Assembly (NCBI GenBank): GCA_020161065.1
Contig: JAIUPH010000008.1
Coordinates: forward strand, 341,040 to 405,039
DNA length: 64,000 bases
From: Pseudomonadota bacterium
GTDB taxonomy: Bacteria; Pseudomonadota; Gammaproteobacteria; Burkholderiales; Burkholderiaceae_C
Direction: 5' to 3'
Part shown: positions 46,481 to 60,345 of the stretch, piece by piece
Numbering within the stretch: position 1 is the first letter of the stretch
Layout: the number at the start of each line of letters is the position of its first letter
Program-made: the position numbers and the translations under genes
Notes under the pieces: generated by a model
What the model was told of the DNA's origin: nothing
What the model saw: only the letters and a program-made list of their open reading frames with translations
Databases searched by the model: none

Positions 46481-48331
46481 ATGACCGACTTCGAGAAACT
46501 GCTGTCCACCCAGTCGCTGGCGCAACTGCGCGCCGAATTGAGCACCGGCAAGGCACCGGCCAGCCCTGCGCACGCACAGCAACTGGCCGCGCATGCTGCC
46601 AGGCTGGCGGCGCCGACGCATGAATTGCGCATCGGCTTCGTCCACACCTACACCAGCGACTTGCTCGACCCCTGGCTCGGCATGGCTGCCGCGGTGCAAG
46701 GCACGTCGATCAAGATCCATCACGCGCCCTACGGGCTGGCGCTGCAGGAAGCCGCGCCGCAGTCTGCGCTGGTGCAGCACAAGCCGCAGCTCACGGTGCT
46801 GCTGCTGCAGCGCGAAGACCTGCATCCGGCGCTGGCGCGCCCGGTCACCGGCCTCGGCGTCGAAGGCATGGCGCAGCTTCGCAGCCAGGCGCTGCAGCAC
46901 TTGCAGGAGATCGTGGCCCGCTTTCGCGAGCAGCCGGTCGGCCACCTCGTCGTGAGCCTGCTGCCGCGCATCGCGGGTCCGGCGCTGGGGCTGTTCGATG
47001 CCCAGGCCGAAGCCTCGGAAGGCGCCTGGTGGTCGGGCCTGAAGGCCGAGCTGGGCCAATGGCTGCGCACGGCAGTGCCTTCGTCGCTGCTGCTCGACCT
47101 CGACGAGGTGCTGCTGCAGGTCGGCCGCACGGCCTTCTTCGACCGCCGCTTCTGGTATTCGGCGCGCTTCCCGTTCGCGCCGGCGGCGGCCCATGAAATC
47201 AGCCGGCGGCTGGTGGCCATCGGCATCGCGCTGACCACGCCCAAGGCCAAGGTGCTGGTGCTCGACGCCGACAACACGCTGTGGGGCGGGGTCGTCGGCG
47301 AGGACGGCTTCGATGGCATCAAGCTCGGCCCCGACTACCCGGGCAACGTCTACGTCGACTTCCAGCGCCGCATCCTCGATTTCCAGCAGCGCGGCCTGAT
47401 TCTCGCGATGTGCAGCAAGAACAATGCGGCCGACGTCGACCAGGTGCTGAAGGAGCACCCGCACCAGGTGCTGCGCGACGAGCGCTTCGCGGCGCGGCGC
47501 GTCAACTGGGTGCCCAAGCCGGAAAACCTGGTGTCGCTGGCCAAGGAGCTGAACCTGGGGCTGGACGCGTTCATCTTCGTCGACGACAGCGACCACGAGT
47601 GCGCCGCCGTGCGCCATGCGCTGCCGCAGGTCGAGGTGATCCAGGTGCCGTCGCGACCGACCGAGATCGCCGGTTGCCTCGACCAGGTGGCCCGGCTGGA
47701 GGTGCTGTCGCTGACGGCCGAAGACCTGTCGAAGACCGAGATGTACGCGCAGGAACGGCGCCGCCGCGAGCTAATGGACAGCGCCGACACCGGTGGCGAC
47801 TACCTGCAGCGGCTGGGCATGAAGATGAGCATCCGCGTCGACGTGCCCGCCAACGTGCCGCGCCTGGCGCAGCTGACGCAGAAGACCAACCAGTTCAACC
47901 TGACGACGCGCCGCTACGACGAGCAGCAGATCCAGTCGTTCCAGCGCGCTGAAGACTGGCTGGTGGCCGACTTCTCGCTGGCCGACACTTTCGGCGACAG
48001 CGGCGTCGTCGGCCTGGCGTTGATCAACCTGACGACGCCGCAATCGGCACGGCTGGACAGCTTCATGATGTCGTGCCGGGTGATCGGGCGCGAAGCCGAA
48101 GGGGCCTTCCTGCACACCTTGTTCCGCCACCTGGCCGAGCGTGGCGTGCAGGAGGTGAGCGCCGAATACCTGCCGACGGCGAAGAACGACCTGGTGAAGA
48201 ACTTCCTGCCCGACCAGGGCTTCGAGCCGCTGGGCGACGGCAAGTACCGGCGCGACCTGGCGAAGTCACCGCCCAGGGTCGAGAGCGAATTTCCGATCGA
48301 GATTTTGTTGACCGCGGGTGGCGGGCGCTGA
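46481..48331 (+). CDS. FkbH-like HAD-IIIC phosphatase/acyl-loading protein
   Basis: This 616-residue protein matches the FkbH family, which takes 1,3-bisphosphoglycerate, dephosphorylates it and loads a D-glyceryl group on an acyl carrier protein. An N-terminal SGNH-like region (about 40-240, IGFVHTYTSDLLDPWLG) precedes the HAD domain with the nucleophile motif LVLDADNTLWGG (Asp262 and Asp264), then LAMCSKNN and IFVDDSDHECA. A C-terminal GNAT-like region (about 450-600) has LTQKTNQFNLTTRRY and FGDSGVVGLALI. The ATG at 46481 (MTDFEKLL) is preferred; 46406 is an in-frame alternative. An ACP gene follows 28 bases downstream, the expected acceptor. Confidence 0.9.
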   Translation: MTDFEKLLSTQSLAQLRAELSTGKAPASPAHAQQLAAHAARLAAPTHELRIGFVHTYTSDLLDPWLGMAAAVQGTSIKIHHAPYGLALQEAAPQSALVQHKPQLTVLLLQREDLHPALARPVTGLGVEGMAQLRSQALQHLQEIVARFREQPVGHLVVSLLPRIAGPALGLFDAQAEASEGAWWSGLKAELGQWLRTAVPSSLLLDLDEVLLQVGRTAFFDRRFWYSARFPFAPAAAHEISRRLVAIGIALTTPKAKVLVLDADNTLWGGVVGEDGFDGIKLGPDYPGNVYVDFQRRILDFQQRGLILAMCSKNNAADVDQVLKEHPHQVLRDERFAARRVNWVPKPENLVSLAKELNLGLDAFIFVDDSDHECAAVRHALPQVEVIQVPSRPTEIAGCLDQVARLEVLSLTAEDLSKTEMYAQERRRRELMDSADTGGDYLQRLGMKMSIRVDVPANVPRLAQLTQKTNQFNLTTRRYDEQQIQSFQRAEDWLVADFSLADTFGDSGVVGLALINLTTPQSARLDSFMMSCRVIGREAEGAFLHTLFRHLAERGVQEVSAEYLPTAKNDLVKNFLPDQGFEPLGDGKYRRDLAKSPPRVESEFPIEILLTAGGGR

Positions 48332-48359
48332 GCCGCGTTCGCCCCCATCAGCCTGAGGC

Positions 48360-48608
48360 ATGAGTGTGTCCATGACGACCTTCGAAAAACTGCAACAGAC
48401 GATCGCCGCCACGCTGAAGGTGCCGCCGGCCAAGGTGACGCAAACCACGCGCGACCAGGACCTGCCGGCCTGGGATTCACTCGGCCAGGTCAACCTGATC
48501 ATGGCGCTGGAGCAGGAGTTCAACGTCTTCATCGAGGTCGAGGAGTTCGGCAAGCTGAACTCGGTGCCGGCGATCCTGGGCTTCCTGGAGCAGCAAGGCC
48601 TGTCGTGA
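48360..48608 (+). CDS. Acyl carrier protein 1 (FkbH-linked)
   Basis: This 82-residue stand-alone carrier protein has the phosphopantetheine attachment sequence AWDSLGQVNLIMALE, with the modified Ser at about residue 40. The surrounding four-helix pattern is complete (LQQTIAATLKV; FNVFIEVEEF; AILGFLEQQ). A second ATG lies four codons in (48372). It sits 28 bases after the FkbH-like gene, and its TGA overlaps the GTG start of the double hydrolase gene. The order therefore reads loading enzyme, carrier and acyl-transfer or release enzyme. It is not part of a fatty-acid synthesis locus. Confidence 0.92.
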   Translation: MSVSMTTFEKLQQTIAATLKVPPAKVTQTTRDQDLPAWDSLGQVNLIMALEQEFNVFIEVEEFGKLNSVPAILGFLEQQGLS

Positions 48609-50428
48609 GCAGCGTGAGCCTGGACGCGGGCAGCGTTCGCGACGCCGCCGCCGCGCCGGCGGTGGCGCCGGCGGCGGCCGTGAAGCCGCAGGCCTTCGTG
48701 CTGCCGGGTTCGCGCGGCGGGTTGTGCGCGCTGTACTTTGCGCCGCGCCCCGGCGTGGCGCTCAAGGGCGACGTGCTGGTGGTGCCCTCTTTCGCCGAGG
48801 AGATGAACCGCTGCCGGGCGATGGTGTCGCTGCAGGCCCGCGCCTGGGCCGAAGAGGGCGTGGGCACGCTGGTGCTCGACCCCCATGGCACCGGCGACAG
48901 CGCCGGCGACTTCGTCGACGCCACCTGGGCCCAGTGGCGCGACGATCTGCTGCGCGGCATTGCCTGGCTCGAACGGCACGGCCAGGGCTGCCAGGCGCTG
49001 CTGGGCATTCGCCTGGGCGCGATCATGGCGGCCGAACTGGCGCGCGAAGCGGGCGGCGTGCGCCACCTGCTGCTGTGGCAGCCGGTGCTGTCAGGCAAGA
49101 CCTTCTACACGCAGTTCCTGCGCATCCGCATCGCCGCCGAGCTGAACCTGCCCGAGCGCGTGAAGTCGACCAACGAGCTGCGCCAGATGGGCGCCGCCGG
49201 CAAGGCCGTCGAAGTATCGGGTTATGAAATCGGCCCCACCCTCGGCGCTGAACTCGACGGCCTGAGCTTCGACGCCGCCGCCTGCGCAACCCGCACGGCG
49301 ATCACCTGGTTCGAGGTCAACGCCGAGGCCGAGGCGACGATTGCCCCCGCGTCGCAGAAGGCGATCGACGAGTTGCGCCACGCCGGCGCGACGGTGCAGG
49401 CGCACAGCGTCGCGGGGCCGGCCTTCTGGCACGTGCATGAGCGTGAGCTGGCCCCGTCGCTGATCGCCGCCACCACGCGCTGCGCCGCTGCCTGGGGCGT
49501 GCGAGACGCCGCCCATGCCGGCGAGCCCGCCGAGCCCGGCGAAGCGGCCGTCGCCGCGCCGGCCGAGTTTCCGCTGGTGCTGCGCTGCGGGCCCGAGCTG
49601 CTGTCGGCCAACCTGCACCTGTCGGCGCCCGATGCCACGCGAGGCGTGGTCATCATCGTCGCCGGCGGGCCGCAATACCGCGCCGGTGCGCACCGCCAGT
49701 TCGTGGCGATGGCGCGCAAGCTTGCCGCGAACGGTTATCCGGTGCTGCGCTTCGACCTGCGCGGCATGGGCGACAGCAGTGGCAGCTACCTCGGCTACGA
49801 GCATTCGGTGCCCGACATCCGCGCCGCCATCGACGAGTTGATGGCGCGCCAACCGCAGCTACGGGACGTGACGCTGGTCGGCGAATGCGAGTCGGCCTCG
49901 GGCATCCTGTTCTACGCCTTCCGCGATGCGCGGGTCAGCGGCGCGGTGCTGATCAACCCCTGGGTGCGCACCACCGAAGGCCGCGCGCAGGTGATCCTGA
50001 AAGACTACTACTTCGACCGCCTGCGCTCACCCGAGTTCTGGTCCAAGCTGCGCAGCGGCCGCTTCGACGTGCTGGGGTCGTTGCGCTCGCTGGCCGACGT
50101 CGTGCGCGCCTACGTGCGCGGCAAGCGCATGTTCGCGCGCTCGTCGCTGGGCCAGGCGGAGGACGATCTGTCCGCGCTGCCGTTGCCGGTGCGCACGGCA
50201 ACCGGCATGAGCCGCTTCACCGGCCGCGTGCTGCTGCTGATGAGCGGCAACGACTACATCGCGCGCGAGTTCGACGAGGTGGTGGCCGCGTCGCGCGCGT
50301 GGGACGGCTTGCTCGCCGACCCGCGCGTGCTGCGCCGGGACATCGAAGGTGCCGACCACACCTTCTCGCGCAGGCACTGGAAGGAAGCCGCGTCCGACGC
50401 GGTGGTCGGCTGGATCAAGGCCTGGTAG
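48605..50428 (+). CDS. Fused double alpha/beta hydrolase, exosortase-A-system hydrolase 2 + 1 type
   Basis: This 607-residue protein contains two alpha/beta-hydrolase domains. The first (about 20-300; VLVVPSFAEEMNRCRAMV, DPHGTGDSAGDF, LLWQPVLSGKTF) resembles hydrolase 2, and the second (about 315-607; VAGGPQYRAGAHRQFVAMA, FDLRGMGDSSGSY) resembles hydrolase 1 of exosortase-A loci. These are usually two separate genes. At the nucleophile elbow the first has Arg136 (GIRLG) and the second Cys428 (GECES), with a later Asp and GADHTF His. The first half is probably non-catalytic, and the second resembles Cys-dependent acyl transfer enzymes more than Ser hydrolases. The GTG start overlaps the ACP stop. 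Confidence 0.85.
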   Translation: MSSVSLDAGSVRDAAAAPAVAPAAAVKPQAFVLPGSRGGLCALYFAPRPGVALKGDVLVVPSFAEEMNRCRAMVSLQARAWAEEGVGTLVLDPHGTGDSAGDFVDATWAQWRDDLLRGIAWLERHGQGCQALLGIRLGAIMAAELAREAGGVRHLLLWQPVLSGKTFYTQFLRIRIAAELNLPERVKSTNELRQMGAAGKAVEVSGYEIGPTLGAELDGLSFDAAACATRTAITWFEVNAEAEATIAPASQKAIDELRHAGATVQAHSVAGPAFWHVHERELAPSLIAATTRCAAAWGVRDAAHAGEPAEPGEAAVAAPAEFPLVLRCGPELLSANLHLSAPDATRGVVIIVAGGPQYRAGAHRQFVAMARKLAANGYPVLRFDLRGMGDSSGSYLGYEHSVPDIRAAIDELMARQPQLRDVTLVGECESASGILFYAFRDARVSGAVLINPWVRTTEGRAQVILKDYYFDRLRSPEFWSKLRSGRFDVLGSLRSLADVVRAYVRGKRMFARSSLGQAEDDLSALPLPVRTATGMSRFTGRVLLLMSGNDYIAREFDEVVAASRAWDGLLADPRVLRRDIEGADHTFSRRHWKEAASDAVVGWIKAW

Positions 50429-50434
50429 CGGCCT

Positions 50435-51181
50435 TCATCGCGACGCGGCCGAAGCGGCTGGCGCCGCCGATGCCGCTGAAGCCGGCACCGACGCGGCGTC
50501 GGCGGCCGCGGCGGGCACGGGGTCGGTCCACTTGCCGGCGGCCTGCAGGCCCTGCTTGAGATCGGGCCGCGCAAAGCCCTGGGCGATGGCCAGGTGCGCC
50601 TGCGCCAGCGCCTTGTCGTACTGCTTGAGGTCGAGGTACAGCAGGCCCAGGTTGTGGTGGGTGAAAGGCTCGTCCTTCACCACATCCGCGATGACGTCGA
50701 GCTGTCGCATCGCTTCATCGGGCCGGCCTTTGACGGTGAGGTACTTGGCGTACAGCATGCGCGCGATCTGGTCGTCGGGCCTGAAGGTCAGCGCCCGCTT
50801 GAAGTAGCACTCGACCGGGAAGTTCGCGCCCTTGAGCGTGTCGCTCTTCATGCGCACGCTCAGATTCAGCATCGACGCCAGCGCCCGATGGTGGTTCGGG
50901 AACGCGCGCAGCGTGTAGTCGATCTCGCCGGCCAGGGTGCCCGACACGCCGCGGATCAGCGATTCGACGGCCGGCGTGAAGTGGTAGTCCTCGACGATCT
51001 TGAGCTGCTGACCCTGGGTGACGCGGTAGTCGAACGGGCCGTAGGTGTTGGCGAAGGCATTGCCGCAGACGGGATCGGCGGCCTGTGCCGCCGCCGGCGG
51101 CGCAAAGGCAGCCGCCAGCATCAGGGCCAGGATCAAGGCCGGCCGGTGGGCGGGACTGGGTCGAAAGCGGGTGATTCCCAT
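50435..51181 (-). CDS. Secreted TPR-repeat protein
   Basis: This 248-residue protein has a signal peptide (about residues 1-34, core ALILALMLAAAFAPPAAAQA). In the mature part DPVCGNAFANTYGPFDYR is followed by YHFTPAVESLIRG. From about residue 95 come tetratricopeptide-like repeats (HHRALASMLNLSVRM, DDQIARMLYAKYLTVKGRPDEAMRQL and FTHHNLGLLYLDLKQYDKALAQAHLA). The tail is Ala/Ser-rich low complexity. The ATG at 51181 was chosen because upstream in-frame sequence adds only an Arg-rich leader before the signal peptide. It lies 119 bases downstream of the sulfotransferase gene on the same strand. It is a likely periplasmic scaffold for the glycan machinery. Confidence 0.78.
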   Translation of the reverse strand: MGITRFRPSPAHRPALILALMLAAAFAPPAAAQAADPVCGNAFANTYGPFDYRVTQGQQLKIVEDYHFTPAVESLIRGVSGTLAGEIDYTLRAFPNHHRALASMLNLSVRMKSDTLKGANFPVECYFKRALTFRPDDQIARMLYAKYLTVKGRPDEAMRQLDVIADVVKDEPFTHHNLGLLYLDLKQYDKALAQAHLAIAQGFARPDLKQGLQAAGKWTDPVPAAAADAASVPASAASAAPAASAASR

Positions 51182-51300
51182 GGCGCTGGTTGCGGCCTCG
51201 ACGGAGGCTGAAGCGAGCGCGAAGTCTATACGCCGGGCCCGCCGGCCCCGGCTGGCGTCGGCACCGCCGTGCAAGGGCGGGCCGGCAAAGCTTCACGATG

Positions 51301-52083
51301 TCACGCCGCTGCATCGGCCTTGCGGCGGGCGGTCGCGCCGGCGCTGCGCCCGTCGCGTCGGGCATGGTTCTTCAGGTAGATCAGCAGGGCATGCGCGTGG
51401 TCGATCGGCCCGCGGCTCTTGCGATACAGCGGCTCGCTGCAGACGGCGCGCAGCGTATCCATCGTCAGCGCCAGGCCGAAGGCAGCGTTGAGCCGGTCCA
51501 GCGTGGCCTCGGGGCGCAGCAGCAGGTCCTCGAAGCTGGCCTGCAGGCAAGGCAGGCCGCTCGAACGCACGAAGTGCAGATTGGACTGCGTGATGCCGTC
51601 GTTGTAGCGGCGCGTGAACTGCGGGCTCTGGATGTGGCGGCGGATGTTGGACGACACCCAGGCCTGCACCGGGTCGCGCGTGAGCACCAGCACCGCGATG
51701 CGCTCGAGGTCCAGCGCGCGCGCCCAGACCCGGATGGTCCAGGTCAGCCGCGGATCCTTCCACAGCCAGGGCGCCTGGGCATCGCAGCTCCGCACGAAGT
51801 CCCGGTACGGCGCCAGGTCCAGTTGTTCGGCGGCGCGCTCGATCGCCAGCACGTCGGCGACGTCGAAGCGGTGCTCGTGCGCCAGCGTCGGGTGCAGCTC
51901 GCGCAGCAGCCGCCGGTTCAGTGCCACCAGGTCGGCGCTCTCGTACGTGTTGTAGTCGGGCTTGTGGACCGTTTCACCGCCCAGCCAGTAGCCGGCCTGG
52001 CCGAGCAGGGCCGAGAACACCGAGCTGCCGGTCCAGCCATGGGTGAGCACGATCACGTTGCGCGTGCCGGGGTTGGCGGTCAT
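51301..52083 (-). CDS. Sulfotransferase family protein
   Basis: This 260-residue protein carries the two PAPS-binding signatures: a P-loop-like 5'-phosphosulfate motif VLTHGWTGSSVFSALL at about residues 12-27, and the 3'-phosphate region VLVLTRDPVQAWVSS at about residues 130-144, preceded by LWKDPRLTW. It would transfer sulfate from PAPS to a hydroxyl, here most likely on a sugar of the exported glycan. No signal peptide or membrane helix is seen, so the acceptor is modified in the cytoplasm. It is divergent from the methyltransferase gene and followed on its strand by the secreted TPR gene. Confidence 0.83.
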   Translation of the reverse strand: MTANPGTRNVIVLTHGWTGSSVFSALLGQAGYWLGGETVHKPDYNTYESADLVALNRRLLRELHPTLAHEHRFDVADVLAIERAAEQLDLAPYRDFVRSCDAQAPWLWKDPRLTWTIRVWARALDLERIAVLVLTRDPVQAWVSSNIRRHIQSPQFTRRYNDGITQSNLHFVRSSGLPCLQASFEDLLLRPEATLDRLNAAFGLALTMDTLRAVCSEPLYRKSRGPIDHAHALLIYLKNHARRDGRSAGATARRKADAAA

Positions 52084-52396
52084 GGGCGTCGTTGCAAGTC
52101 AGTTCGGGTGCGGACTCTCGCGCCCCGGCGTGACGGCCTGATGACGCGCGGCGCCCGGGCGCCGCGCCAATTCGTCACGAGTTCGCCGCCGGCCGTGTGG
52201 AATGGCGCGCAAGCGGTTGATTTCGCGGCGCTTTCGGCGATTGCATGGCGCCTCCGTGAAGCCCCTGCATGCGAGAATGCTTGACGCTTGACGACGGCGT
52301 CGTCAGCGTCCCTGCGGGGATCAAGCCAGGTGGCAGGGCCACGTTTGCCGGTGAGGGGCGGGCCGCTCGTCACCAACCAGGAACACAAGGACATTC
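52084..52396. other. Divergent intergenic region between sulfotransferase and methyltransferase genes
   Basis: These 313 bases must hold promoters in both directions. I see no gene, no clear sigma-70 or sigma-54 promoter pair and no terminator. A short inverted repeat CGACGGCGTCGTC lies near 52292-52304, and a G/C palindrome GGCGCCCGGGCGCC lies near 52150. Either could be an operator, but nothing ties them to a regulator. Confidence 0.3.
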
Positions 52397-53146
52397 ATGG
52401 GCGTGATCGAAAAAGCGGCTTCGACCGAACAGGACTATCGGTCCAGTCACCTGGAAGTCGGCGGCCGCTACGATGCCAAGTTAGCCGAGTCGCCCTTCGA
52501 TGCCTACATGTCGGCCTGGGAACGCAAGTACCTGCCCGGCATCATCAAGCGCTTTTTCCCTAGCGGGCCGGCCCGCTATCTCGACTTCGCCTGCGGCACC
52601 GGTCGCATCACCGAGCAGATCGCGCCGCTGGCCAAGCAATCGGTTGCCGTCGACATCTCGCCGACGATGATCGAAGAGGCGCGGCGCAAGTGCCCGCAGA
52701 CGCGTTTTCATCTCGGCGACCTGACCACGACCGACCCCGACCTCGGTCAGTTCGACCTGGTCAGTTCGTTTCGCTTCTTCGGCAACGCGCAAGACGAACT
52801 GCGCGACGGCGCGCTGCGGGCCATCACGCGCCGTTTGCAGCCGGGCGGCCACCTGCTGATCAACAGCCATCGCAACCCGCGCGCCTTGTACGCGGTGTTG
52901 GACCGCCTGACGGGCGGCCCGGCCAGCGGCATGGACCTTCATCTGCCCAAGCTGCGCAAGCTGCTCGACCGCCACGGGCTGAGCATCGTCTGGCTGCAGC
53001 CGATCGCCGTGTGGATGTACCGCTCGCGCATCATGCTCGACACCCGCCCGGACGACTCACAGGCCGCGGCGAAAGAGGCCCGCTACGGCAGCGCTTCGTT
53101 CGCGTCCATCGCGCCCGACCTCATCGTCGTCGCCCGCAAGCGCTGA
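52397..53146 (+). CDS. Class I SAM-dependent methyltransferase
   Basis: This 249-residue Rossmann-fold methyltransferase shows motif I as YLDFACGTGRITEQIAPL, the acidic motif II SVAVDISPTMIEEARRK, the GDLTTTDPDLG segment and motif IV-like FDLVSSFRFFGN. LQPGGHLLINSHRNPRAL serves as the post-motif. It probably methylates a small molecule or sugar intermediate; the acceptor cannot be read from sequence. It is first of three plus-strand genes (methyltransferase, degenerate methyltransferase-like, kinase-like) spaced by 27 bases and a 4-base overlap. Confidence 0.87.
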   Translation: MGVIEKAASTEQDYRSSHLEVGGRYDAKLAESPFDAYMSAWERKYLPGIIKRFFPSGPARYLDFACGTGRITEQIAPLAKQSVAVDISPTMIEEARRKCPQTRFHLGDLTTTDPDLGQFDLVSSFRFFGNAQDELRDGALRAITRRLQPGGHLLINSHRNPRALYAVLDRLTGGPASGMDLHLPKLRKLLDRHGLSIVWLQPIAVWMYRSRIMLDTRPDDSQAAAKEARYGSASFASIAPDLIVVARKR

Positions 53147-53173
53147 GCGCTCGCCGCCACGCACGCGGGTTCG

Positions 53174-53839: not shown

Positions 53840-54738
53840 TCGACGAGGTGCTCGGTCTCGTGGCCGACGAGCATTGGTTCGATCGCTCGCGGCCGTTCGA
53901 GGTCTCGATCAACCTCACCCAGGGCGCCTGCCTGTGGCTGCTGCTGACGCGCCGCGGCGTCAGCGATACCTACGTCAAGTTTTCCGATTGCTTCGACCTG
54001 CGCCAGGAGGCCGCTCGCGCCGCGGCGGCCAGCACGCGCTACCCGGGCCTGGCGCCGGCCTTCATCGGCCATGCCAGCCGCGGTACGCTGCAGGTGCTGG
54101 TGTGCCGGGCCGTGCCCTACCGCCGGCTGTCGCCGGCGCAGTTGTTCCACCCCCGGCAGGGACAGCGCGCGCTGGCCGATCTGCTGGGTTATTTCGACGC
54201 CATGCAGCGGCCACAGGCGGTGCAGGTGCCGGGCCTGTCGGCGGCGGCCGAGCCCGCCGAGCTGCTGCAAGCACTGCAGGCCTACTTCGCCGGCCAGCCC
54301 AGCGCAGCGCTGGCCCGGCGCTGGCTGCGCAACGATGCGTTGTCGCGGCTGGCCAGCGTCGTGCCCCATGCGCAGCACGGCGACCTGGTGCTCAACAACA
54401 TCGGCGTCACGCCGACGGGCGCCACCGTCGTCTTCGATTGGGAAGACCTGAGCGCGTCGTGGCTCACCGGCCTCGATCTGTTCACCCTGGAACTGTCGCT
54501 GGCGGGCAGTGCCGAGCGCCTGTTCGCCGCGCGCCTGCAGCCGCAGTCACCGATTTCAGGGCTGGTCGCCCGCGCCTGCGAGGCGATGCGGCTGCGCCGC
54601 GACGACTACGAGACGCTGACGCCGCTGTACGCGCTGGTTTTCCGTTATCTCAAGCGCAACTATGGGCCCGGCGTGCGCGAGCGCATGGACCTGCTGCTGC
54701 GCGACCTCGACCAGCAGCGCAACCGCGCGCTGGACTGA
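53836..54738 (+). CDS. APH/choline-kinase-like phosphotransferase
   Basis: This 300-residue protein has the protein-kinase-like fold of small-molecule kinases. The catalytic loop HGDLVLNNIGV (about residues 189-199) and the metal-binding FDWED (about 210-214) are intact. An N-lobe Lys occurs in TYVKFSD (about residue 47). Members phosphorylate aminoglycosides, choline, homoserine or sugars. In this setting a sugar or an amino-alcohol substituent is more likely than an antibiotic. The ATG overlaps the stop of the methyltransferase-like gene. The 3' end is 12 bases from the convergent ACP 2 gene. Confidence 0.8.
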   Translation: MIDEVLGLVADEHWFDRSRPFEVSINLTQGACLWLLLTRRGVSDTYVKFSDCFDLRQEAARAAAASTRYPGLAPAFIGHASRGTLQVLVCRAVPYRRLSPAQLFHPRQGQRALADLLGYFDAMQRPQAVQVPGLSAAAEPAELLQALQAYFAGQPSAALARRWLRNDALSRLASVVPHAQHGDLVLNNIGVTPTGATVVFDWEDLSASWLTGLDLFTLELSLAGSAERLFAARLQPQSPISGLVARACEAMRLRRDDYETLTPLYALVFRYLKRNYGPGVRERMDLLLRDLDQQRNRALD

Positions 54739-54750
54739 AGCCGCCGCGAA

Positions 54751-55002
54751 TCAGGCCGCAGCTTTCTGTTGCACGAATTCGAGCAGCGTGCCGAAGGTGC
54801 GGAAAATCGAACCGTCGATCTCGTCGTCTTCGACCGTGATGCCCAGGCGGTCCTCGAATGCCGTGAGCAGCGACACCACGCCCATCGAATCGAGTTCCGG
54901 CAGCGCGCCCATCAACGGCGAGTCGTCCTTCAGGCTGAGGCCGCGGCCGCCCAGGCTGAGCGTCGTGTCCAGGAGCGAAAGCAATTCGGTTCTGATGTCC
55001 AA
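54751..55002 (-). CDS. Acyl carrier protein 2 (exosortase-A-system type)
   Basis: This 83-residue carrier protein has the attachment site ELDSMGVVSLLTAFE, with Ser at about residue 39, and ends DDEIDGSIFRTFGTLLEFVQQK. The PELDSM motif and the acidic helix 3 are typical of the ACPs that accompany exosortase-A-associated ligases. The start is a TTG at 55002 backed by a strong AGGAG 8 bases upstream. It is divergent from the AMP-forming ligase gene, with 167 bases between. This is the expected carrier for the ligase and PLP decarboxylase encoded next to it. Confidence 0.9.
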   Translation of the reverse strand: MDIRTELLSLLDTTLSLGGRGLSLKDDSPLMGALPELDSMGVVSLLTAFEDRLGITVEDDEIDGSIFRTFGTLLEFVQQKAAA

Positions 55003-55169
55003 GCCGGATCTCCTGGGCAGGCGAGCAAAGTGGCCCGCATTCTAGGTGGCTGCCGCGCCGTGGGCAGGCGCACTTCGTCACAGAACGCCGGGCCACCGTG
55101 TCAGGGCCGGCGCAAGGCCCTGCGCTACATTTTTGGGCTGGCTTCGCAAGGCCCTTCAACCGCGTGAGC

Positions 55170-56768
55170 ATGCCCGTGCCCGAATCGACCCTGCTTCCCG
55201 AACTGATCTTCGCCACGGCCGCCCGCGCCGGCGCCAACACGGCGCTGACCGACGGCAAGCGGGCGGCGTCGTATGCCGACCTCGAAGACCAGGTTCGCCG
55301 CTTTGCCTGGGGCCTGGTGGCGCACGGCGTGGCCCGTGCCGAGCGGGTGGCCATCTACCTCGACAAGCGCATCGAGACCGTGGTGGCCAGCTTCGGCGCC
55401 ACCGCGGCCGGCGCGGTGTTCGTGCCGGTCAATCCCTTGCTCAAGCCCGAGCAGGTCGGCTTCATCCTGCGCGACTGCGACGTGCGCGTGCTGGTGACCT
55501 CGGCCGAGCGCCTGCCGCTGCTGCCGTCGGTGCTGGCCGAATGCCCGGCCTTGCGCACGGTGGTCGTGGTCGGCGACCTGCCGCCGGCACCGCCCTCGAC
55601 GACGCCCGTGGTGCCATGGTCGCAACTGCTGCGCACGGGCCCGCAGGCCACGCACCGCGTCATCGACACCGACATGGCGGCCATTCTCTACACCTCGGGC
55701 AGCACCGGGCGTCCCAAGGGCGTGGTGCTGTCCCACCGCAACATGGTGGCCGGCGCCAAGAGCGTGGCCAGCTACTTGGAAAACGTTGCCGCCGACACCT
55801 TGCTGGCCGCGCTGCCGTTGTCGTTCGACGCCGGCTTCAGCCAGTTGACCACGGCCTTCCACAGCGGCGCGCGCGTGGTGCTGCTGAACTACCTGCTGCC
55901 GCGCGACGTGCTCAAGGCGATGGAGCGCGAACAGGTCACCGGCCTGACCGCGGTGCCGCCGCTGTACATCCAGCTCACGCAGTTGCCGTGGCCCGAGGCC
56001 ATCGGCCGGCACCTGCGCTATTTCGCCAACACCGGCGGCCGCATGCCGCGCGAAACGCTGGCACTGCTGCAGCAGAAGGTGCCGCAGGCCAAGCCGTTCC
56101 TGATGTACGGCCTGACCGAAGCGTTTCGCTCGACCTACCTGCCGCCGGAAGAAGTCGCGCGCCGGCCCGATTCCATCGGAAAGGCCATTCCGAATGCGGA
56201 GATCCTGGTGCTGCGGCCCGACGGCACGCCTTGCGACGACGACGAGCCCGGCGAGCTGGTGCACCGCGGCGCGCTGGTCGGCATGGGCTACTGGGGCGAT
56301 GCCGAGAAGACGGCCGAGCGGTACAAGCTGATGCCCGGCCGCGAGAGCGGGCTGCAACTGCCCGAGTACGCCGTGTTCTCCGGCGACACCGTGCGCCGCG
56401 ACCGCGACGGGTTTCTCTACTTCGTCGGCCGGCGCGACGAGATGATCAAGACCTCGGGCTACCGCGTCAGTCCGACCGAGGTGGAAGAGGTGCTGTACGC
56501 CACGCGCCTGGTCGGCGAATGCGCGGCCTTCGGCGTCGATCATCCGTCGCTGGGCCAGGCCATTCACGTCATCGCCACGGCGCCGGAGGCGGCCGCCGAT
56601 GTCGACGTGCCGGCCTTGCTGGCGCAGTGCAAGGCGCGCATGCCGGCCTACATGGTGCCGGCGCAGGTGCAGGTGGTGGCGGGCCCGCTGCCGCGCAACC
56701 CCAACGGCAAGATCGACCGCAAGCTGCTGGCCACCGAATGGGTCGCGCCGACCCGCGAAACCGCCTGA
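55170..56768 (+). CDS. AMP-forming acyl-CoA/ACP ligase, exosortase-A-system type
   Basis: This 532-residue adenylate-forming enzyme activates a carboxylic acid with ATP and passes it to CoA or a carrier protein. The P-loop ILYTSGSTGRPKGVVLS (about residues 172-188), LMYGLTEAFRST, GELVHRGALVGMGYWGD, the hinge VGRRDEMIKTSGYRVSPTE and the C-terminal catalytic Lys region NPNGKIDRK are all present. The sequence closely follows the ligase found with PLP decarboxylases in exosortase-A loci. The start is the ATG at 55170, with a GTG two codons upstream. The PLP decarboxylase gene begins 10 bases after its stop. Confidence 0.9.
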   Translation: MPVPESTLLPELIFATAARAGANTALTDGKRAASYADLEDQVRRFAWGLVAHGVARAERVAIYLDKRIETVVASFGATAAGAVFVPVNPLLKPEQVGFILRDCDVRVLVTSAERLPLLPSVLAECPALRTVVVVGDLPPAPPSTTPVVPWSQLLRTGPQATHRVIDTDMAAILYTSGSTGRPKGVVLSHRNMVAGAKSVASYLENVAADTLLAALPLSFDAGFSQLTTAFHSGARVVLLNYLLPRDVLKAMEREQVTGLTAVPPLYIQLTQLPWPEAIGRHLRYFANTGGRMPRETLALLQQKVPQAKPFLMYGLTEAFRSTYLPPEEVARRPDSIGKAIPNAEILVLRPDGTPCDDDEPGELVHRGALVGMGYWGDAEKTAERYKLMPGRESGLQLPEYAVFSGDTVRRDRDGFLYFVGRRDEMIKTSGYRVSPTEVEEVLYATRLVGECAAFGVDHPSLGQAIHVIATAPEAAADVDVPALLAQCKARMPAYMVPAQVQVVAGPLPRNPNGKIDRKLLATEWVAPTRETA

Positions 56769-56778
56769 GGCCGCCGCG

Positions 56779-58062
56779 ATGAACGACGAACGCAGCACGG
56801 CCCCACGCGCAGCGCCGGCGCATGTGCCGATGTCGCAGTACGGCTTGTCGGGCGACGAACTCGTGGTCGGCGGCAAGCCGATCTCGGTGCTGGCCACGCA
56901 GGTCGGGCAGACGCCGTTCTACGCCTATGACCGCGGCCTGCTCGCGGCGCGCGCCGCGCAGCTGCGCCAGGCGCTGCCGGCCGGCGTCAAGCTGCACTAC
57001 GCGATGAAGGCCAATCCGATGCCGGCGCTGGTGGCGCTGATGGCGCGGCTGGTCGACGGCATCGACGTGGCATCGGCCGGCGAGCTGAAGGTGGCGCTGG
57101 ATGCCGGCGCCGACGCGGCCGAAGTCAGCTTCGCCGGGCCCGGCAAGCGCGACATCGAACTGCACCAGGCGGTGGCGGCCGGCGTGCTGGTGAACGTCGA
57201 ATCGGCGCGCGAGCTGCCGGTGCTGGCGCAGGCGTCGCAAGCGCTTGGCCTGCCCGCGCGGGTGGCCGTGCGCGTGAACCCCGACTTCGAGCTGAAGGGC
57301 TCGGGCATGAAGATGGGCGGCGGCTCCAAGCAGTTCGGCGTCGATGCCGAGGCGGTGCCGGCGCTGCTGTCGCAGATCGGCAAGCTGCAACTGCAGTTCG
57401 AGGGCTTCCACCTCTTCGCCGGTTCGCAGAACCTGCGCGCCGAATCGATCTGCGAAGCGCAGCGGCTGTCGTACGAGCTGGCTCGGCAGTTGGCCGGGCA
57501 CGCGCCGGCGCCGGTGCGTTTTCTCAACCTGGGCGGCGGCTTCGGCATTCCCTACTTTCCCGGCGAGCAGCGGCTGGACCTGCAGCCCATCGGCGAGAAC
57601 CTGGCCGCGCTGCAGGAGCGCGCCCGCACCGAGCTGCCCGAGGCCAGCCTGGTGATCGAACTTGGGCGTTATCTGGTCGGAGAGGCCGGCGTCTACGTGA
57701 CGCGCGTGGTCGACCGCAAGGTCTCCCGCGGACAGGTCTACCTGGTGTGCGACGGCGGCCTCAACCACCACCTGTCGGCTTCAGGCAACTTCGGCCAGGT
57801 GCTGCGCAAGAACTACCCGGCGACGATCGGCAACCGCGCCGGCAGCCGCGCCGGCAACACCACGCGCGAGACGGCGTCGGCGGTGGGGCCGCTGTGCACG
57901 CCGCTGGATCTGCTGGCCGACCGCATGGAACTGCCCGTGGCGCAGGCCGGTGATCTGCTGGTCATCTTCCAGTCGGGCGCCTATGGCGCGAGCGCCAGCC
58001 CGCAAGGCTTTCTCGGCCATCCCGTGTATGCCGAGGTGCTGGTCGGCGCGGTCAACAGCTGA
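56779..58062 (+). CDS. PLP-dependent decarboxylase, exosortase-A-system type
   Basis: This 427-residue fold-III decarboxylase belongs to the diaminopimelate/ornithine decarboxylase superfamily. The PLP Lys77 lies in HYAMKANPMP, the phosphate loop in LNLGGGFGIPYFPGE and the dimer active-site Cys373 in GPLCTPLDLLAD, so catalysis should be intact. The substrate pocket differs from LysA and matches the exosortase-A-associated subfamily. The substrate is presumably an amino acid joined to or destined for the neighbouring ligase and carrier protein. It is 10 bases after the ligase gene. Its last 11 bases overlap the convergent SDR gene. Confidence 0.9.
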   Translation: MNDERSTAPRAAPAHVPMSQYGLSGDELVVGGKPISVLATQVGQTPFYAYDRGLLAARAAQLRQALPAGVKLHYAMKANPMPALVALMARLVDGIDVASAGELKVALDAGADAAEVSFAGPGKRDIELHQAVAAGVLVNVESARELPVLAQASQALGLPARVAVRVNPDFELKGSGMKMGGGSKQFGVDAEAVPALLSQIGKLQLQFEGFHLFAGSQNLRAESICEAQRLSYELARQLAGHAPAPVRFLNLGGGFGIPYFPGEQRLDLQPIGENLAALQERARTELPEASLVIELGRYLVGEAGVYVTRVVDRKVSRGQVYLVCDGGLNHHLSASGNFGQVLRKNYPATIGNRAGSRAGNTTRETASAVGPLCTPLDLLADRMELPVAQAGDLLVIFQSGAYGASASPQGFLGHPVYAEVLVGAVNS

Positions 58063-58798
58063 TGCCGCCGTCGATGACGAGCGTCTGGCCGGTGATGAAC
58101 GCCGCCTGATCCGACAACAGGAACAGCACCACGGGCACCACATCGTCGACCGTGCCCAGGCGGCCGAGCGGCGTGCGGTTGATGATCTGGCTGCGCTGGC
58201 GCTGCTGAAGGCTGGCCGACATCTCGGTTTCGAGGTAGCCCGGCGCGACCGAATTGACCGTGATCTTGCGCCGCCCCACCTCGCGCGCCAGCGCACGGGT
58301 CAGGCCGTCGAGCCCGGCTTTCGACGCCGAGTAGGCGGCCAGCCCCGTGTAGCCGCGCGAGCCGATGATCGAGCTGATGTTGATCAGGCGCCCCGCCGTG
58401 CCCTTGGACAGCAGGTGCCGCAAGGCCAGCCGGCTCAGACGCAACGCGCCCGTCAGGTTGGTTTCGATGATGCGTTCACTATCGACGTTAGGCAGCGTGG
58501 CCAGGATGCCGTCCTGCGCCGTCGCCGCATTGTTGATGAGCGCCCACAACGGCCGCCCGGCCGTCCATTGCACGGCCTGCGCGAAAAACCGCTCTTCGTC
58601 TTCGGCCTGGCCGACCGCGGCTGCACACCACGACAACCGCGCCGGGCCGGCTTGCGCCATCAACGCTTGCAGTTCGGGCGTCTGGCTGCGGCTGCAGGTG
58701 AAGACGTTGTAGCCCTGCTGCAGCAACTGGCGCGTGGTGGCCAGGCCCAGGCCGCGGCTGCCGCCCGTCACGAGCACGCATTTGTCCGTCATGTCCAT
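58052..58798 (-). CDS. FabG-like short-chain dehydrogenase/reductase
   Basis: This 248-residue classical SDR has the NADP(H)-binding VTGGSRGLGLATT, the LINNAATAQDG motif, catalytic Ser in NISSIIGSRG and YSASKAG (Tyr-x-x-x-Lys), and the terminal ITGQTLVIDGG. The pattern fits 3-oxoacyl-ACP reductases. The gene starts immediately after the stop of the second AMP-forming ligase, with no spacer, in the order ACP 3, ligase, SDR. It is therefore expected to reduce an acyl group activated by that ligase and carried on ACP 3. Confidence 0.9.
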   Translation of the reverse strand: MDMTDKCVLVTGGSRGLGLATTRQLLQQGYNVFTCSRSQTPELQALMAQAGPARLSWCAAAVGQAEDEERFFAQAVQWTAGRPLWALINNAATAQDGILATLPNVDSERIIETNLTGALRLSRLALRHLLSKGTAGRLINISSIIGSRGYTGLAAYSASKAGLDGLTRALAREVGRRKITVNSVAPGYLETEMSASLQQRQRSQIINRTPLGRLGTVDDVVPVVLFLLSDQAAFITGQTLVIDGGISC

Positions 58799-60100
58799 TC
58801 ATCCCCCTCGCTGCTTCTTGCCGGTGGCTGAAGCATCCAAAGCCGTCACTTGCCGCAGCACGCGCGGCACCTTGTAGCCGCCAAGCCGCTGCCTGGCGTG
58901 GGCGACGATGATCGGCCTGACGTCGTCCAGGCGCAGGCCCTCGGCCAGCACCAGCTCCACGCCGACCAGTTCGCCGGTGATCGGATTGCGTGCCGCGAAG
59001 GCGCGCACATCCGCCACCTGTGGCAGTTCGAGCAGCGCCGCCTCGATTTCCTCGGGCCTGACTTTCGCGCCGCCGACATTGATGACCGAGTCGACACGGC
59101 CACGAAACAGCACGCGATCGCCCTCTGCTTCGACCAGGTCGCCGGTGGACAGCCAACCGTCGGCATCGATCGGCGATGCCCCGGCGCCGGCCACGTAGGC
59201 CTGCATGGCGCGCGGGCTGCGCACCTGCAGCGCGCCATCGCGGATGCGCAGGCTCACGCCGTCGATGCCGTCGTCCAGCCAGGCCCGCGGGAAACCGGCA
59301 CGGCCGTCGCGCACGGCATACAAGGCCCCGGCTTCGGTCGACGCGTAGATGTGGACGATGCCGGCCGCGGGGAAGCACTGGCGCAGGCGGTCGAGCGTGA
59401 CCTGATCGACCGCCTCACCGCCGAGCGTGATGTGCCGCAGCGGCACGGAAGCCGCCTGCGGGCCCAGCGCCAGCATGAAGCCGCGCCAGAACGTCGGCGT
59501 CCCGCTGCACAGCGTGGGCCGATGGGCCAGCGCCGCGGCGGCCAGGCTGGCCACGGTGGATCGGCTCACGGCCAGCAGTTCGGCGCCCGACACCAACGCC
59601 GTCAGCAACACCTGCAGGCCGGCAAAGCTGCACGGGTGGTAGGTCAGCAAGACGCGGTCGTGCTGCGCGGCGGCGGCATCGCGTGGCGACCGCACGCGGC
59701 CCAGCAAGCGATCCAGCCGATGCATCGCGACCTTGGGCGTGCCGGTGGTTCCCGAAGTGGCCAGCAGCACCAGCCCCGCCGCTTCGGCCCGCCGCGGCAG
59801 CGGCAACTCGACCAGGCCCAACTCGCCATCGAGCAGCGCCGAGACGCCCAGCTCGCGCCACACCGGCGAATCGGGCGGCGTGGCCTGGCGCCACAGCAGC
59901 AGATCGCAACCGGCACGCTGGCAGGCGAGCAGAGCGACCAGCGCGGCGTCGGCGCGGTCGGAGATCAAGGCCACGCGCTGACGCGCCCCTTGTTCGAGTC
60001 GCTGCGCCAGGCCGGCCACCAGGGCCTGCACCGCGGCCGCGGGCAAGCGCACGCCGTCTTGCAACAGGCCGGCGGTGCCGATCGTCAGCTCGGCGGCCAT
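58799..60100 (-). CDS. Second AMP-forming ligase, short form
   Basis: This 433-residue adenylate-forming enzyme is shorter than usual (most are 500-550) because its N-terminal region is reduced. The core motifs remain: LLATSGTTGTPKVAM, YASTEAGALY, STGDLVE, and the hinge RVDSVINVGGAKVRPEEIE. It ends SATGKKQRGG, keeping a lysine near the catalytic position. Such short forms load carrier proteins in small biosynthetic clusters. Its ATG shares one base with the stop of ACP 3 (TGATG), and its own stop touches the SDR start, giving a tight three-gene unit. The carboxylate substrate is unknown. Confidence 0.85.
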   Translation of the reverse strand: MAAELTIGTAGLLQDGVRLPAAAVQALVAGLAQRLEQGARQRVALISDRADAALVALLACQRAGCDLLLWRQATPPDSPVWRELGVSALLDGELGLVELPLPRRAEAAGLVLLATSGTTGTPKVAMHRLDRLLGRVRSPRDAAAAQHDRVLLTYHPCSFAGLQVLLTALVSGAELLAVSRSTVASLAAAALAHRPTLCSGTPTFWRGFMLALGPQAASVPLRHITLGGEAVDQVTLDRLRQCFPAAGIVHIYASTEAGALYAVRDGRAGFPRAWLDDGIDGVSLRIRDGALQVRSPRAMQAYVAGAGASPIDADGWLSTGDLVEAEGDRVLFRGRVDSVINVGGAKVRPEEIEAALLELPQVADVRAFAARNPITGELVGVELVLAEGLRLDDVRPIIVAHARQRLGGYKVPRVLRQVTALDASATGKKQRGG

Positions 60101-60345
60101 CAGCCCACGTACAGCGCCGCCAGCTCGCCCACGGTGCGGAACTCGATGAAACCGCCGGCAAAGGGGTCCTTGCCCAACCGCGTTTCCAGTTCCACCACCA
60201 CCGCGGCGAGGTCGAGCGAATCGATGTCGAGCTCACCCCCCAACAAGCGCGTTTGCGAGTTGACGGGCCCGGCCTGCTGCCCCCGTTCTGCGAGAATTCT
60301 CTGCACCAGTTCGGCAATCAGTGATTCGACTTGTTCGATGCTCAT
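60100..60345 (-). CDS. Acyl carrier protein 3
   Basis: This 81-residue carrier protein has the attachment site LDIDSLDLAAVVVELE, with Ser near residue 42, and the usual flanking helices. The ATG at 60345 (MSIEQVES) is used; a GTG five codons earlier is possible. Together with the downstream ligase and SDR it forms a compact operon in which stop and start codons touch. It is the third carrier protein within 12 kb, and its sequence differs clearly from ACP 1 (DSLGQVN) and ACP 2 (DSMGVVS), suggesting separate acyl cargoes. Confidence 0.88.
   Translation of the reverse strand: MSIEQVESLIAELVQRILAERGQQAGPVNSQTRLLGGELDIDSLDLAAVVVELETRLGKDPFAGGFIEFRTVGELAALYVG

What the first reader, a model, noticed from the sequence alone, without database searches (positions are those of the whole stretch)
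46481..60345. Carrier-protein acyl module resembling exosortase-A loci but without an exosortase
In under 14 kb there are three stand-alone ACPs, two AMP-forming ligases, a PLP decarboxylase, an FkbH-like loader, an SDR and a fused double hydrolase, interleaved with sulfotransferase, methyltransferase and kinase genes. Ligase, decarboxylase, ACP 2 and both hydrolase domains resemble families catalogued as exosortase-A-associated, whose chemistry is uncharacterised as far as I know. Neither an EpsH/XrtA-type transpeptidase nor a PEP-CTERM substrate is in the window. Inference: the module synthesises an acyl or amino-acyl group and attaches it to the exported glycan, and its link to exosortase loci comes from the glycan rather than protein sorting.
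Basis: partly seen in the sequence, partly recalled or inferred. Interest (0 to 1): 0.8.

Follow-up and report, generated by a model that had tools for sequence, protein, structure and literature searches.

The report
Carrier-bound amino acid decarboxylation in exopolysaccharide loci
A set of bacterial genes long listed only as 'exosortase-associated' looks like a small assembly line that loads an amino acid on a carrier protein, removes its carboxyl group and probably passes the product to a surface sugar polymer; the genome does have an exosortase, but outside the stretch first read.

Summary
Observation confirmed. The ligase, decarboxylase and both halves of the fused hydrolase pass the cut-offs of TIGR03098, 03099, 03101 and 03100. 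"Without an exosortase" holds only for the window: the genome has XrtA (362 bits) in an XrtA exopolysaccharide locus and 20 PEP-CTERM tails over cut-off, perhaps just across a contig break.

What it is: a carrier-protein amino-acid decarboxylation unit. The decarboxylase and BtrK (L-glutamyl-carrier decarboxylase) are mutual best matches. The ligase is nearest to VinN among stand-alone solved ligases; aligned pocket Asp and Arg are invariant in 88 of 88. Its carrier, ACP2, is in 24 of 25 decarboxylase-positive genomes tested, all ten without XrtA included, and 0 of 11 others.

The "hydrolases" are odd: hydrolase 1 has Cys for Ser in 80 of 80, hydrolase 2 Arg in 82 of 82. In 110 genomes of one family hydrolase 1 follows XrtA (44 both, 62 neither, 4 discordant); the decarboxylase does not (48 of 94 lack XrtA).

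Most likely: ligase, ACP2 and decarboxylase make an omega-amino-acyl-ACP, which the hydrolase pair transfers to XrtA-locus exopolysaccharide. First part well supported; transfer inferred.

The parts
54751..55002 (-). ACP2, the dedicated carrier protein (Ser39, codon 54886-54888)
   Evidence: In 64 of 80 named loci, divergent and adjacent to the ligase in 54 of 80; 24 of 25 TIGR03099+ genomes tested, 0 of 11 TIGR03099-
55098..56768 (+). AMP-forming amino-acid:ACP ligase, TIGR03098 (the start may be the ATG at 55170)
   Evidence: 771.6 bits, cut-off 592.35; 3wvn (VinN, name recalled) best stand-alone solved relative, 192 bits; D244 and R344 invariant 88 of 88
56779..58062 (+). PLP decarboxylase, TIGR03099, BtrK-like
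   Evidence: 612.7 bits; BtrK 279 bits vs diaminopimelate decarboxylase 159; reciprocal: BtrK scores TIGR03099 377 vs lysA 261
48605..50428 (+). fused hydrolase 2 (N, TIGR03101) and hydrolase 1 (C, TIGR03100)
   Evidence: Arg at the nucleophile elbow of hydrolase 2 (codon 49010-49012), Cys of hydrolase 1 (49886-49888), Asp 50252-50254, His 50357-50359
46406..48331 (+). FkbH-type loader (HAD-IIIC plus FkbH domain)
   Evidence: TIGR01686 286 bits; accessory: relative in 1 of 80 named loci, Ideonella sp. A 288, L155
48360..48608 (+). ACP1, carrier between FkbH and the fused hydrolase
   Evidence: PP-binding 24.2 bits; DSL serine
44823..46277 (-). MaoC-like plus SDR fusion
   Evidence: MaoC 50.2 bits; relative beside FkbH in L155
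37937..39622 (-). asparagine-synthetase-like protein, probably without a working glutaminase
   Evidence: Asn_synthase 257 bits, aligned from position 119 of TIGR03108; SGGTDS in 10 of 10 sequences read, no Met-Cys-Gly start found; in 21 of 80 named loci (20 at the stricter setting)
58052..58798 (-). SDR of the second carrier cassette
   Evidence: 208.6 bits to TIGR01830, below its cut-off 297.75; no relative in 80 named loci at the setting
58799..60100 (-). second, short AMP-binding ligase
   Evidence: AMP-binding 93.6 bits; TIGR03098 only 87 bits
60100..60360 (-). ACP3
   Evidence: PP-binding 26.1 bits
53836..54738 (+). APH-like kinase-like protein
   Evidence: Pfam APH 27.6 bits; frame conserved with L100, 56% identical
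51301..52083 (-). sulfotransferase
   Evidence: Sulfotransfer_3 28.7 bits; 62% identical relative in L100
52397..53146 (+). SAM methyltransferase
   Evidence: Methyltransf_25 67.5 bits
50435..51274 (-). TPR protein, frequent module neighbour
   Evidence: 25 of 80 named loci
42419..44008 (+). MOP/Wzx-type flippase
   Evidence: Polysacc_synt_3 225 bits

Best explanation
The core is ligase, ACP2 and decarboxylase. The ligase adenylates an amino dicarboxylic acid (aspartate-, methylaspartate- or glutamate-like) at its distal carboxylate and loads it on ACP2. The PLP decarboxylase then removes the alpha-carboxylate of the carrier-bound amino acid, leaving an omega-amino-acyl thioester (beta-alanyl, 3-aminoisobutyryl or 4-aminobutyryl), as VinN/VinL/VinO and BtrI/BtrK do for antibiotics. 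In genomes with an XrtA exopolysaccharide locus a partner pair is usually added: hydrolase 1, an alpha/beta-hydrolase-fold enzyme with a cysteine nucleophile, takes the acyl group from ACP2 and transfers it to a hydroxyl or amine of the XrtA-locus exopolysaccharide or its lipid-linked repeat, together with hydrolase 2, which has arginine where the nucleophile should be and is probably catalytically dead. In this genome the pair is fused into one protein and the module is enriched with a FkbH/ACP1 and a short-ligase/ACP3/SDR cassette. Shown: families, residues, gene co-occurrence. Inferred from homology: loading and decarboxylation. Inferred from residues and distribution only: transfer, and the acceptor.
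For: Decarboxylase: BtrK is the best solved relative (279 vs 159 bits for the next enzyme) and TIGR03099 is BtrK's best of 18,950 NCBIfam models (377 vs lysA 261); the C-T-P-x-D motif is shared with BtrK and invariant in 19 of 19, where diaminopimelate decarboxylase 2p3e has C-E-x-x-D. Ligase: VinN is the best stand-alone match; the Asp and Arg that align with VinN Asp230 and Arg331 (numbers and roles recalled) are invariant in 88 of 88, and two other pocket positions occur only as A with T (79) or Y with S (9). Carrier: ACP2 in 24 of 25 TIGR03099+ genomes tested, also where the genes are on different contigs (G244 C3 and C9), and 0 of 11 TIGR03099- genomes. Hydrolases: Cys 80 of 80, Asp and His 78 of 80; Arg elbow 82 of 82; the two were found together in 80 loci (81 with hydrolase 1, 83 with hydrolase 2) and fused in 5 of those 80; hydrolase 1 and XrtA 44/2/2/62 in 110 genomes. 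Precedent: VinN-type ligases load VinL-type carriers and VinO-type enzymes decarboxylate (PMC5785472, PMC10662134, passages).
Against: No substrate or product has been measured. Cysteine at the elbow also occurs in true hydrolases (dienelactone hydrolase, recalled), so hydrolase 1 could simply release the product. 24 of 60 XrtA genomes in the order sample have no TIGR03099 and 20 of these also lack hydrolase 1, so XrtA does not need the module. 5 of 36 genomes with both XrtA and TIGR03099 lack hydrolase 1. In the five genomes without XrtA over cut-off that I read, the ligase-decarboxylase pair is not beside recognisable glycan genes. G103 has the decarboxylase but no ACP2 match and no ligase match in the 40 kb read around it. 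Multidomain synthetases (linear gramicidin synthetase 217 bits, 8xjz 195) score slightly above VinN for the ligase. Genomes are related, so Fisher values overstate independence. The hydrolase models resemble esterases and lipases, not a known acyltransferase.
Confidence: 0.5

Rival explanations
1. The triad makes a free or small-molecule product (beta-alanine, GABA, an N-acyl amino acid or an ovothiol conjugate) that hydrolase 1, where present, releases as a thioesterase; no polymer is modified.
For: TIGR03099 persists without XrtA over cut-off and without hydrolase 1 in 9 of 46 decarboxylase genomes, even in a 1.3 Mb genome, and all 9 have ACP2. In the five read, the ligase-decarboxylase pair lies by a gltX-like gene (by eye), trp genes (trpD 422 bits) or a TIGR03694 N-acyl amino acid synthase, or ACP2 heads an ovoA-lyase operon. 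The hydrolase fold is esterase-like.
Against: 46 of 80 named loci hold all five genes (ACP2, both hydrolases, ligase, decarboxylase), and 28 of the 48 loci with hydrolase 1 also hold a Wzx, Wzy-like, ligase, glycosyltransferase or UDP-sugar dehydrogenase relative; hydrolase 1 is nearly confined to XrtA genomes in the family tested, which a simple thioesterase would not explain.
Confidence: 0.25
2. The amino group made by the module is the nucleophile that exosortase A uses, that is, the module builds the amine-bearing anchor to which PEP-CTERM proteins are joined.
For: Hydrolase 1 and XrtA are inherited together in one family (44/2/2/62); decarboxylation on a carrier yields a primary amine; sortases use amine acceptors (recalled).
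Against: 20 of 24 XrtA genomes without TIGR03099 also lack hydrolase 1, so XrtA is kept without it there.
Confidence: 0.08
3. Dlt-like route: the ligase and ACP2 act as DltA/DltC and the MBOAT at 32274-33884 transfers the group across the membrane.
For: The MBOAT protein matches TIGR04091 (DltB) at 158.8 bits and Pfam MBOAT at 117.9.
Against: 158.8 is below the DltB cut-off 375; an MBOAT relative lies within the flanks held for only 3 of 80 named loci (26 of the 80 are under 20 kb); the ligase scores 192 to VinN and 111 to DltA.
Confidence: 0.07
4. Ordinary acyl-CoA ligase, lysine-biosynthesis decarboxylase and esterases that happen to cluster.
For: The fold families are common.
Against: All four special families over cut-off, lysA under its cut-off; the exact divergent five-gene layout in 36 of 80 loci; genome-wide ACP2 association.
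Confidence: 0.03

Closest known systems
VinN/VinL/VinO (vicenistatin) and homologues PacE/PacC/PacF, SceI/SceH/SceK
   Same: Stand-alone AMP-forming ligase, stand-alone ACP and PLP decarboxylase; the ligase pocket keeps the aligned Asp and Arg
   Different: I noticed no glutamate mutase, VinK-type acyltransferase or polyketide synthase among the genes annotated (not searched for separately); sits in Betaproteobacterial loci with an alpha/beta-hydrolase pair
BtrI/BtrK (butirosin side chain)
   Same: The decarboxylase is the mutual best match of BtrK, named L-glutamyl-[BtrI acyl-carrier protein] decarboxylase in the PDB
   Different: The loading enzyme here is AMP-forming; BtrJ is ATP-grasp (recalled); the acceptor is not an aminoglycoside
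XrtA-associated gene set TIGR03098-03101 (catalogued without a function in NCBIfam names)
   Same: All four families over cut-off; XrtA locus in the same genome
   Different: Hydrolases fused and moved away from ACP2; extra FkbH and short-ligase carrier cassettes; not on one contig with XrtA
Dlt system (DltA, DltC, DltB)
   Same: ANL ligase plus carrier, possibly feeding an envelope polymer
   Different: Has a decarboxylase and a Cys-hydrolase pair; no conserved MBOAT
Dienelactone-hydrolase and PHA-synthase type Cys alpha/beta enzymes (recalled)
   Same: Cys nucleophile in the hydrolase fold
   Different: Paired with an Arg-elbow partner; fold searches rank feruloyl esterases and lipases first

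Membership tests
TIGR03098-03101 exosortase-A-associated set | Score over the curated cut-off of each model | tested here: met
   771.6/592.35, 612.7/478.45, 300.3/168.45, 287.8/202.75
TIGR03098-03101 exosortase-A-associated set | XrtA in the same genome | tested here: met
   TIGR03109 362.1 bits, cut-off 208
TIGR03098-03101 exosortase-A-associated set | Same locus as XrtA | tested here: inconclusive
   Different contigs; both contig ends carry open gene ends; same-family relative G049 has XrtA and TIGR03099 44 kb apart on one contig
VinN/VinL/VinO-type carrier-bound amino acid decarboxylation | ANL ligase with amine-binding Asp and carboxylate-binding Arg | tested here: met
   88 of 88; the role of these residues in VinN is recalled
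VinN/VinL/VinO-type carrier-bound amino acid decarboxylation | Dedicated stand-alone ACP | tested here: met
   24 of 25 against 0 of 11 genomes
VinN/VinL/VinO-type carrier-bound amino acid decarboxylation | Decarboxylase of the acyl-carrier rather than diaminopimelate subfamily | tested here: met
   (against BtrK; VinO itself was not compared)
VinN/VinL/VinO-type carrier-bound amino acid decarboxylation | Decarboxylation of aminoacyl-ACP demonstrated | not testable with these tools
   needs an in vitro assay
Serine alpha/beta hydrolase (as the TIGR03100/03101 names suggest) | Ser nucleophile with His and acid | tested here: not met
   Cys 80 of 80 in hydrolase 1; Arg 82 of 82 in hydrolase 2
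Dlt D-alanylation system | DltB-type MBOAT as conserved partner | tested here: not met
   3 of 80 named loci
Glutamine-dependent asparagine synthetase (37937-39622) | N-terminal catalytic Cys of the glutaminase | tested here: inconclusive
   No Met-Cys-Gly start in 10 sequences read; but G055 and G103 have a Cys a few residues in (MSGICGW, MSGLCGW) and the start of G179 is unclear

The most novel reading that the evidence does not exclude
Carrier-bound amino acid decarboxylation, known from a few antibiotics, is a widespread general pathway in Betaproteobacteria, and where an XrtA locus is present the Cys-hydrolase/Arg-pseudohydrolase pair uses it to put a primary amine on the exopolysaccharide or its lipid, which in those lineages serves as the acceptor to which exosortase A joins PEP-CTERM proteins.
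Probability: 0.09. Interest if true: 0.9.

Novelty: new variant of a known kind. Interest (0 to 1): 0.62.

Why it matters
Four protein families are catalogued as exosortase-A-associated with no stated chemistry; in the library searched, one paper names any of them by accession, TIGR03100 as a predicted hydrolase. The evidence here gives two of them (ligase, decarboxylase), plus an unnamed ACP, a specific and cheaply testable reaction, shows that this part occurs without XrtA, and points to the other two (hydrolases 1 and 2, the second by its near-constant company with the first) as the part tied to XrtA. The named loci include Zoogloea, Thauera and Accumulibacter, bacteria of activated sludge, so the product may matter for what holds flocs together.

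Tried and rejected
Rejected: (1) an exosortase-less genome: XrtA found. (2) Dlt-like transfer by the window's MBOAT: not conserved. (3) FkbH/ACP1 and short ligase/ACP3/SDR as part of the core: of 80 named loci, FkbH and MaoC-SDR relatives only in L155, ACP3 and SDR in none, weak ligase-2 matches (about 26% identical) in 7. (4) A universal exosortase amine acceptor: 20 of 24 XrtA+ TIGR03099- genomes lack hydrolase 1 too. (5) A general ovothiol link: ovoA over cut-off in 9 of 10 decarboxylase+ XrtA- genomes, 8 of 36 with both, 9 of 24 XrtA only, 11 of 180 neither, but the nine are only two lineages, and ACP2 adjoins ovoA in 3 of the 30 ovoA loci held (and, by coordinates, in G001, G136 and G174, which are of the same genus as two of those three).

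Led nowhere: the profile search with the ligase alignment returned only multidomain synthetases; structure searches of the hydrolases gave generic esterases, lipases and some thioesterases with tied scores. No acyltransferase family was singled out; that absence is not evidence. Literature searches for function or context; search listings only, except the passages of six papers.

Rows dropped and limits: identical sequences were counted once and the second copy of the window left out; two hydrolase 2 rows are gapped at the W column; hydrolase 1 of L094 and L107 lack the Asp and His. In one search a first text pattern missed 3 Cys rows and misread 1; the aligned count replaces it. Hydrolase 1 (TIGR03100) was searched in 70 of the 250 order genomes (46 with TIGR03099, 24 with XrtA only), not in the other 180; TIGR03101 was never searched genome-wide. 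In one search I gave 36 chosen genomes: 25 of 46 TIGR03099+ (all 10 without XrtA over cut-off among them), 8 of 24 XrtA-only, 3 of 180 others; at least 4 of the 24 positives supplied rows of the profile. In one search the partial hydrolase 1 of G267 (below cut-off) was counted as absent. Named loci and G-handle genomes may overlap; I could not check.

Full report
OBSERVATION. HMM scans give FkbH (TIGR01686), TIGR03098 ligase, TIGR03099 decarboxylase and a single 607-residue protein that holds TIGR03101 in its N half and TIGR03100 in its C half, each over the curated cut-off. Three short carrier proteins, a FabG-like SDR, a second shorter AMP-binding protein, a sulfotransferase, a methyltransferase and an APH-type kinase-like protein complete the list.

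EXOSORTASE. The window is the right end of contig C34 of a 6.29 Mb draft. The genome has one exosortase match, which scores 362 bits against the XrtA model (cut-off 208), and 20 PEP-CTERM tails over cut-off. XrtA lies on contig C14 within an XrtA exopolysaccharide locus: of ten neighbours scanned, nine pass the cut-off of an XrtA-system model (TIGR03007, 03018, 03015, 03006, 03019, 03088, 03108, 03087, 03097). Only one TIGR03098 gene in the genome passes its cut-off, the one in the window. So the gene set is there but split in the assembly.

LINKAGE. C14 ends on the right in an open reading frame (kelch- and Ig-like by eye) that runs off the contig (L003 16089-18020, plus strand). C34 ends on the right in a minus-strand frame that enters from beyond the contig (63645-64000). 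These could be two ends of one repeat-rich gene; if so, and if the gap is short, XrtA would lie roughly 25 kb from the ligase. Relatives of the C14-end protein lie in the module loci L155, L160 and L110, and more weakly L134; the C34-end piece had no relative in the loci held. In the same-family genome G049 XrtA and the decarboxylase are 44 kb apart on one contig. In other genomes the distance varies: 11 kb in G056, 0.69 Mb in G107.

CHEMISTRY OF THE CORE. The decarboxylase's best solved relative is BtrK, L-glutamyl-[BtrI acyl-carrier protein] decarboxylase (279 bits; next enzyme, a diaminopimelate decarboxylase, 159). In the reverse direction the BtrK sequence shown scores highest, of 18,950 NCBIfam models, on TIGR03099 (377 bits, under that model's cut-off of 478) and only 261 on lysA. 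A C-T-P-x-D motif is invariant in 19 of 19 relatives and present in BtrK, where the diaminopimelate enzyme 2p3e has C-E-x-x-D. The ligase's best stand-alone solved relative is 3wvn (VinN; the PDB label is only 'non-ribosomal peptide synthetase', the name is recalled), 192 bits, ahead of FadD5 (154), malonyl-CoA synthetase (150), a beta-aminoacyl-ACP synthetase (7dq5, 137) and DltA (111); two multidomain synthetases scored higher (217 and 195). From the alignment, and with VinN residue numbers and roles that I recall, the residues that bind the amine (Asp230) and the second carboxylate (Arg331) correspond to D244 and R344, both invariant in 88 of 88 ligases; positions 245 and 312 occur only as A with T (79) or Y with S (9), which suggests two substrate classes. 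Published pathways with this logic: VinN-type ligases load 3-methylaspartate on a VinL-type carrier and VinO-type enzymes decarboxylate it (PMC5785472 and PMC10662134, passages read).

CARRIER. In the 80 named loci (the best 80 of 568 confirmed; 26 are under 20 kb) ACP2 was found in 64, the ligase in 72, hydrolase 2 in 50, hydrolase 1 in 48, the asparagine-synthetase-like protein in 21 and a TPR protein in 25. All five core genes are in 46, and 36 show the exact order hydrolase 1 <- hydrolase 2 <- ACP2 | ligase -> decarboxylase ->. A profile of ACP2 found a match in 24 of 25 TIGR03099-positive genomes given and in 0 of 11 negative ones, including all ten without XrtA over cut-off and cases where carrier and decarboxylase are far apart (G244: contigs 3 and 9; G146: 0.67 Mb apart). 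At least four of the 24 had supplied rows to the profile. G103 is the exception; no ligase match was found in the 40 kb read there either.

HYDROLASES. Aligned over the distinct copies found, hydrolase 1 has Cys at the nucleophile elbow in 80 of 80, the acid Asp in 78 and the His in 78 (L094 and L107 lack both); hydrolase 2 has Arg at its elbow in 82 of 82 and no invariant or nearly invariant His among 35 sequences (the window's own copy has His residues after the conserved F-W). They were found together in 80 loci and are fused in 5 of these, from at least three families by handle, which suggests that they act together. AlphaFold models (pLDDT 89 and 93) are feruloyl-esterase/lipase-like folds. 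A Cys enzyme with an Arg-elbow partner fits acyl transfer from a carrier thioester, but does not prove it.

DISTRIBUTION. In 250 genomes of the order, TIGR03099 is in 46 and XrtA over cut-off in 60; both in 36. Of the ten with TIGR03099 and no XrtA over cut-off, four have a below-cut-off exosortase match and six none at E<=1e-10. Of the 46, 32 have hydrolase 1: 31 of the 36 with XrtA, 1 of the 10 without (G217, whose exosortase match is 177 bits). Of the 24 with XrtA but no TIGR03099, 4 have hydrolase 1. The other 180 genomes were not searched for it. In 110 genomes of one family, XrtA and hydrolase 1 agree in 106 (44 both, 62 neither, 2 and 2 discordant; one of these, G345, has XrtA in two pieces), while TIGR03099 is in 94, 48 of them without XrtA over cut-off (32 with a weaker exosortase match, 16 with none). 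Among genomes searched, hydrolase 1 thus appears mainly where both TIGR03099 and XrtA are present, as a coupling enzyme would. Related genomes are not independent.

WITHOUT XRTA. In five such genomes read, the ligase-decarboxylase pair sits by a gltX-like gene (by eye) and a TIGR03694 N-acyl amino acid synthase (G146, G183, G214), by trp genes (G244, 1.3 Mb), or with ACP2 in front of ovoA and a PatB-type lyase (G001; in G183 ACP2, away from the pair, heads the same operon). G146, G183 and G214 do have a weaker exosortase match elsewhere.

OTHER PARTS. The asparagine-synthetase-like neighbour keeps the SGGTDS site in 10 of 10 sequences read but shows no normal Met-Cys-Gly glutaminase start (G055 and G103 have a Cys a few residues in; the start of G179 is unclear). 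If its glutaminase is dead it would join an amine other than glutamine ammonia to a carboxylate, conceivably the new amino group to a uronic acid (inference). FkbH with a MaoC-SDR fusion recurs only in Ideonella sp. A 288, L155, beside a fused hydrolase.

LITERATURE. No paper in the library holds the phrase 'exosortase A system-associated'; one names TIGR03100, for Bcam1334 of a Burkholderia exopolysaccharide cluster, as a predicted hydrolase possibly for quality control (PMC3584217, passages). Work on floc formation in Aquincola reports that exopolysaccharide genes, prsT and a PEP-CTERM gene are involved (PMC9850573, passages). A reference list seen in passing names a study linking N-acyl amino acid synthases to PEP-CTERM/exosortase systems (in PMC11631085; not read). 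Most subscription journals are outside the library.

VERDICT. A real member of the exosortase-A-associated gene set, whose core is best read as carrier-bound amino-acid decarboxylation. Confidence about 0.7 for loading and decarboxylation, about 0.4 to 0.5 for transfer to the exopolysaccharide by the hydrolase pair.

Noticed in passing
L061:8351-12636 and L206:7726-11741: In two lineages without XrtA over cut-off ACP2 heads an operon ACP2-ovoA-PatB-type lyase (ovothiol synthesis; TIGR04344, 04345, 04350 over cut-off). Possible aminoacylated ovothiol; unexplained.
   Followed up: partly
L072:12359-13180, L073:11846-12625 and L070:12316-13140: A TIGR03694 exosortase-associated N-acyl amino acid synthase follows the ligase-decarboxylase pair in genomes without XrtA over cut-off (two of the three scored by HMM; the third read by eye).
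   Followed up: no
window 55098-56768, residues 245 and 312: The ligase pocket exists in two perfectly coupled states (A/T 79, Y/S 9 of 88), suggesting two substrates.
   Followed up: partly
window 37937-39622: Asparagine-synthetase-like protein without a normal glutaminase start, a frequent neighbour of the module.
   Followed up: partly
L003:16089-18020 and window 63645-64000: Two contig ends with open genes that may be halves of one repeat-rich protein, which would link the XrtA locus to the module.
   Followed up: partly
window 34321-37851: 1,176-residue protein with no Pfam match; parts of it have relatives near the module in G217 and G179.
   Followed up: no
G029:C23:3884-5044: G029 has a second, diverged TIGR03099-like gene (427 bits, below the 478 cut-off).
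   Followed up: no
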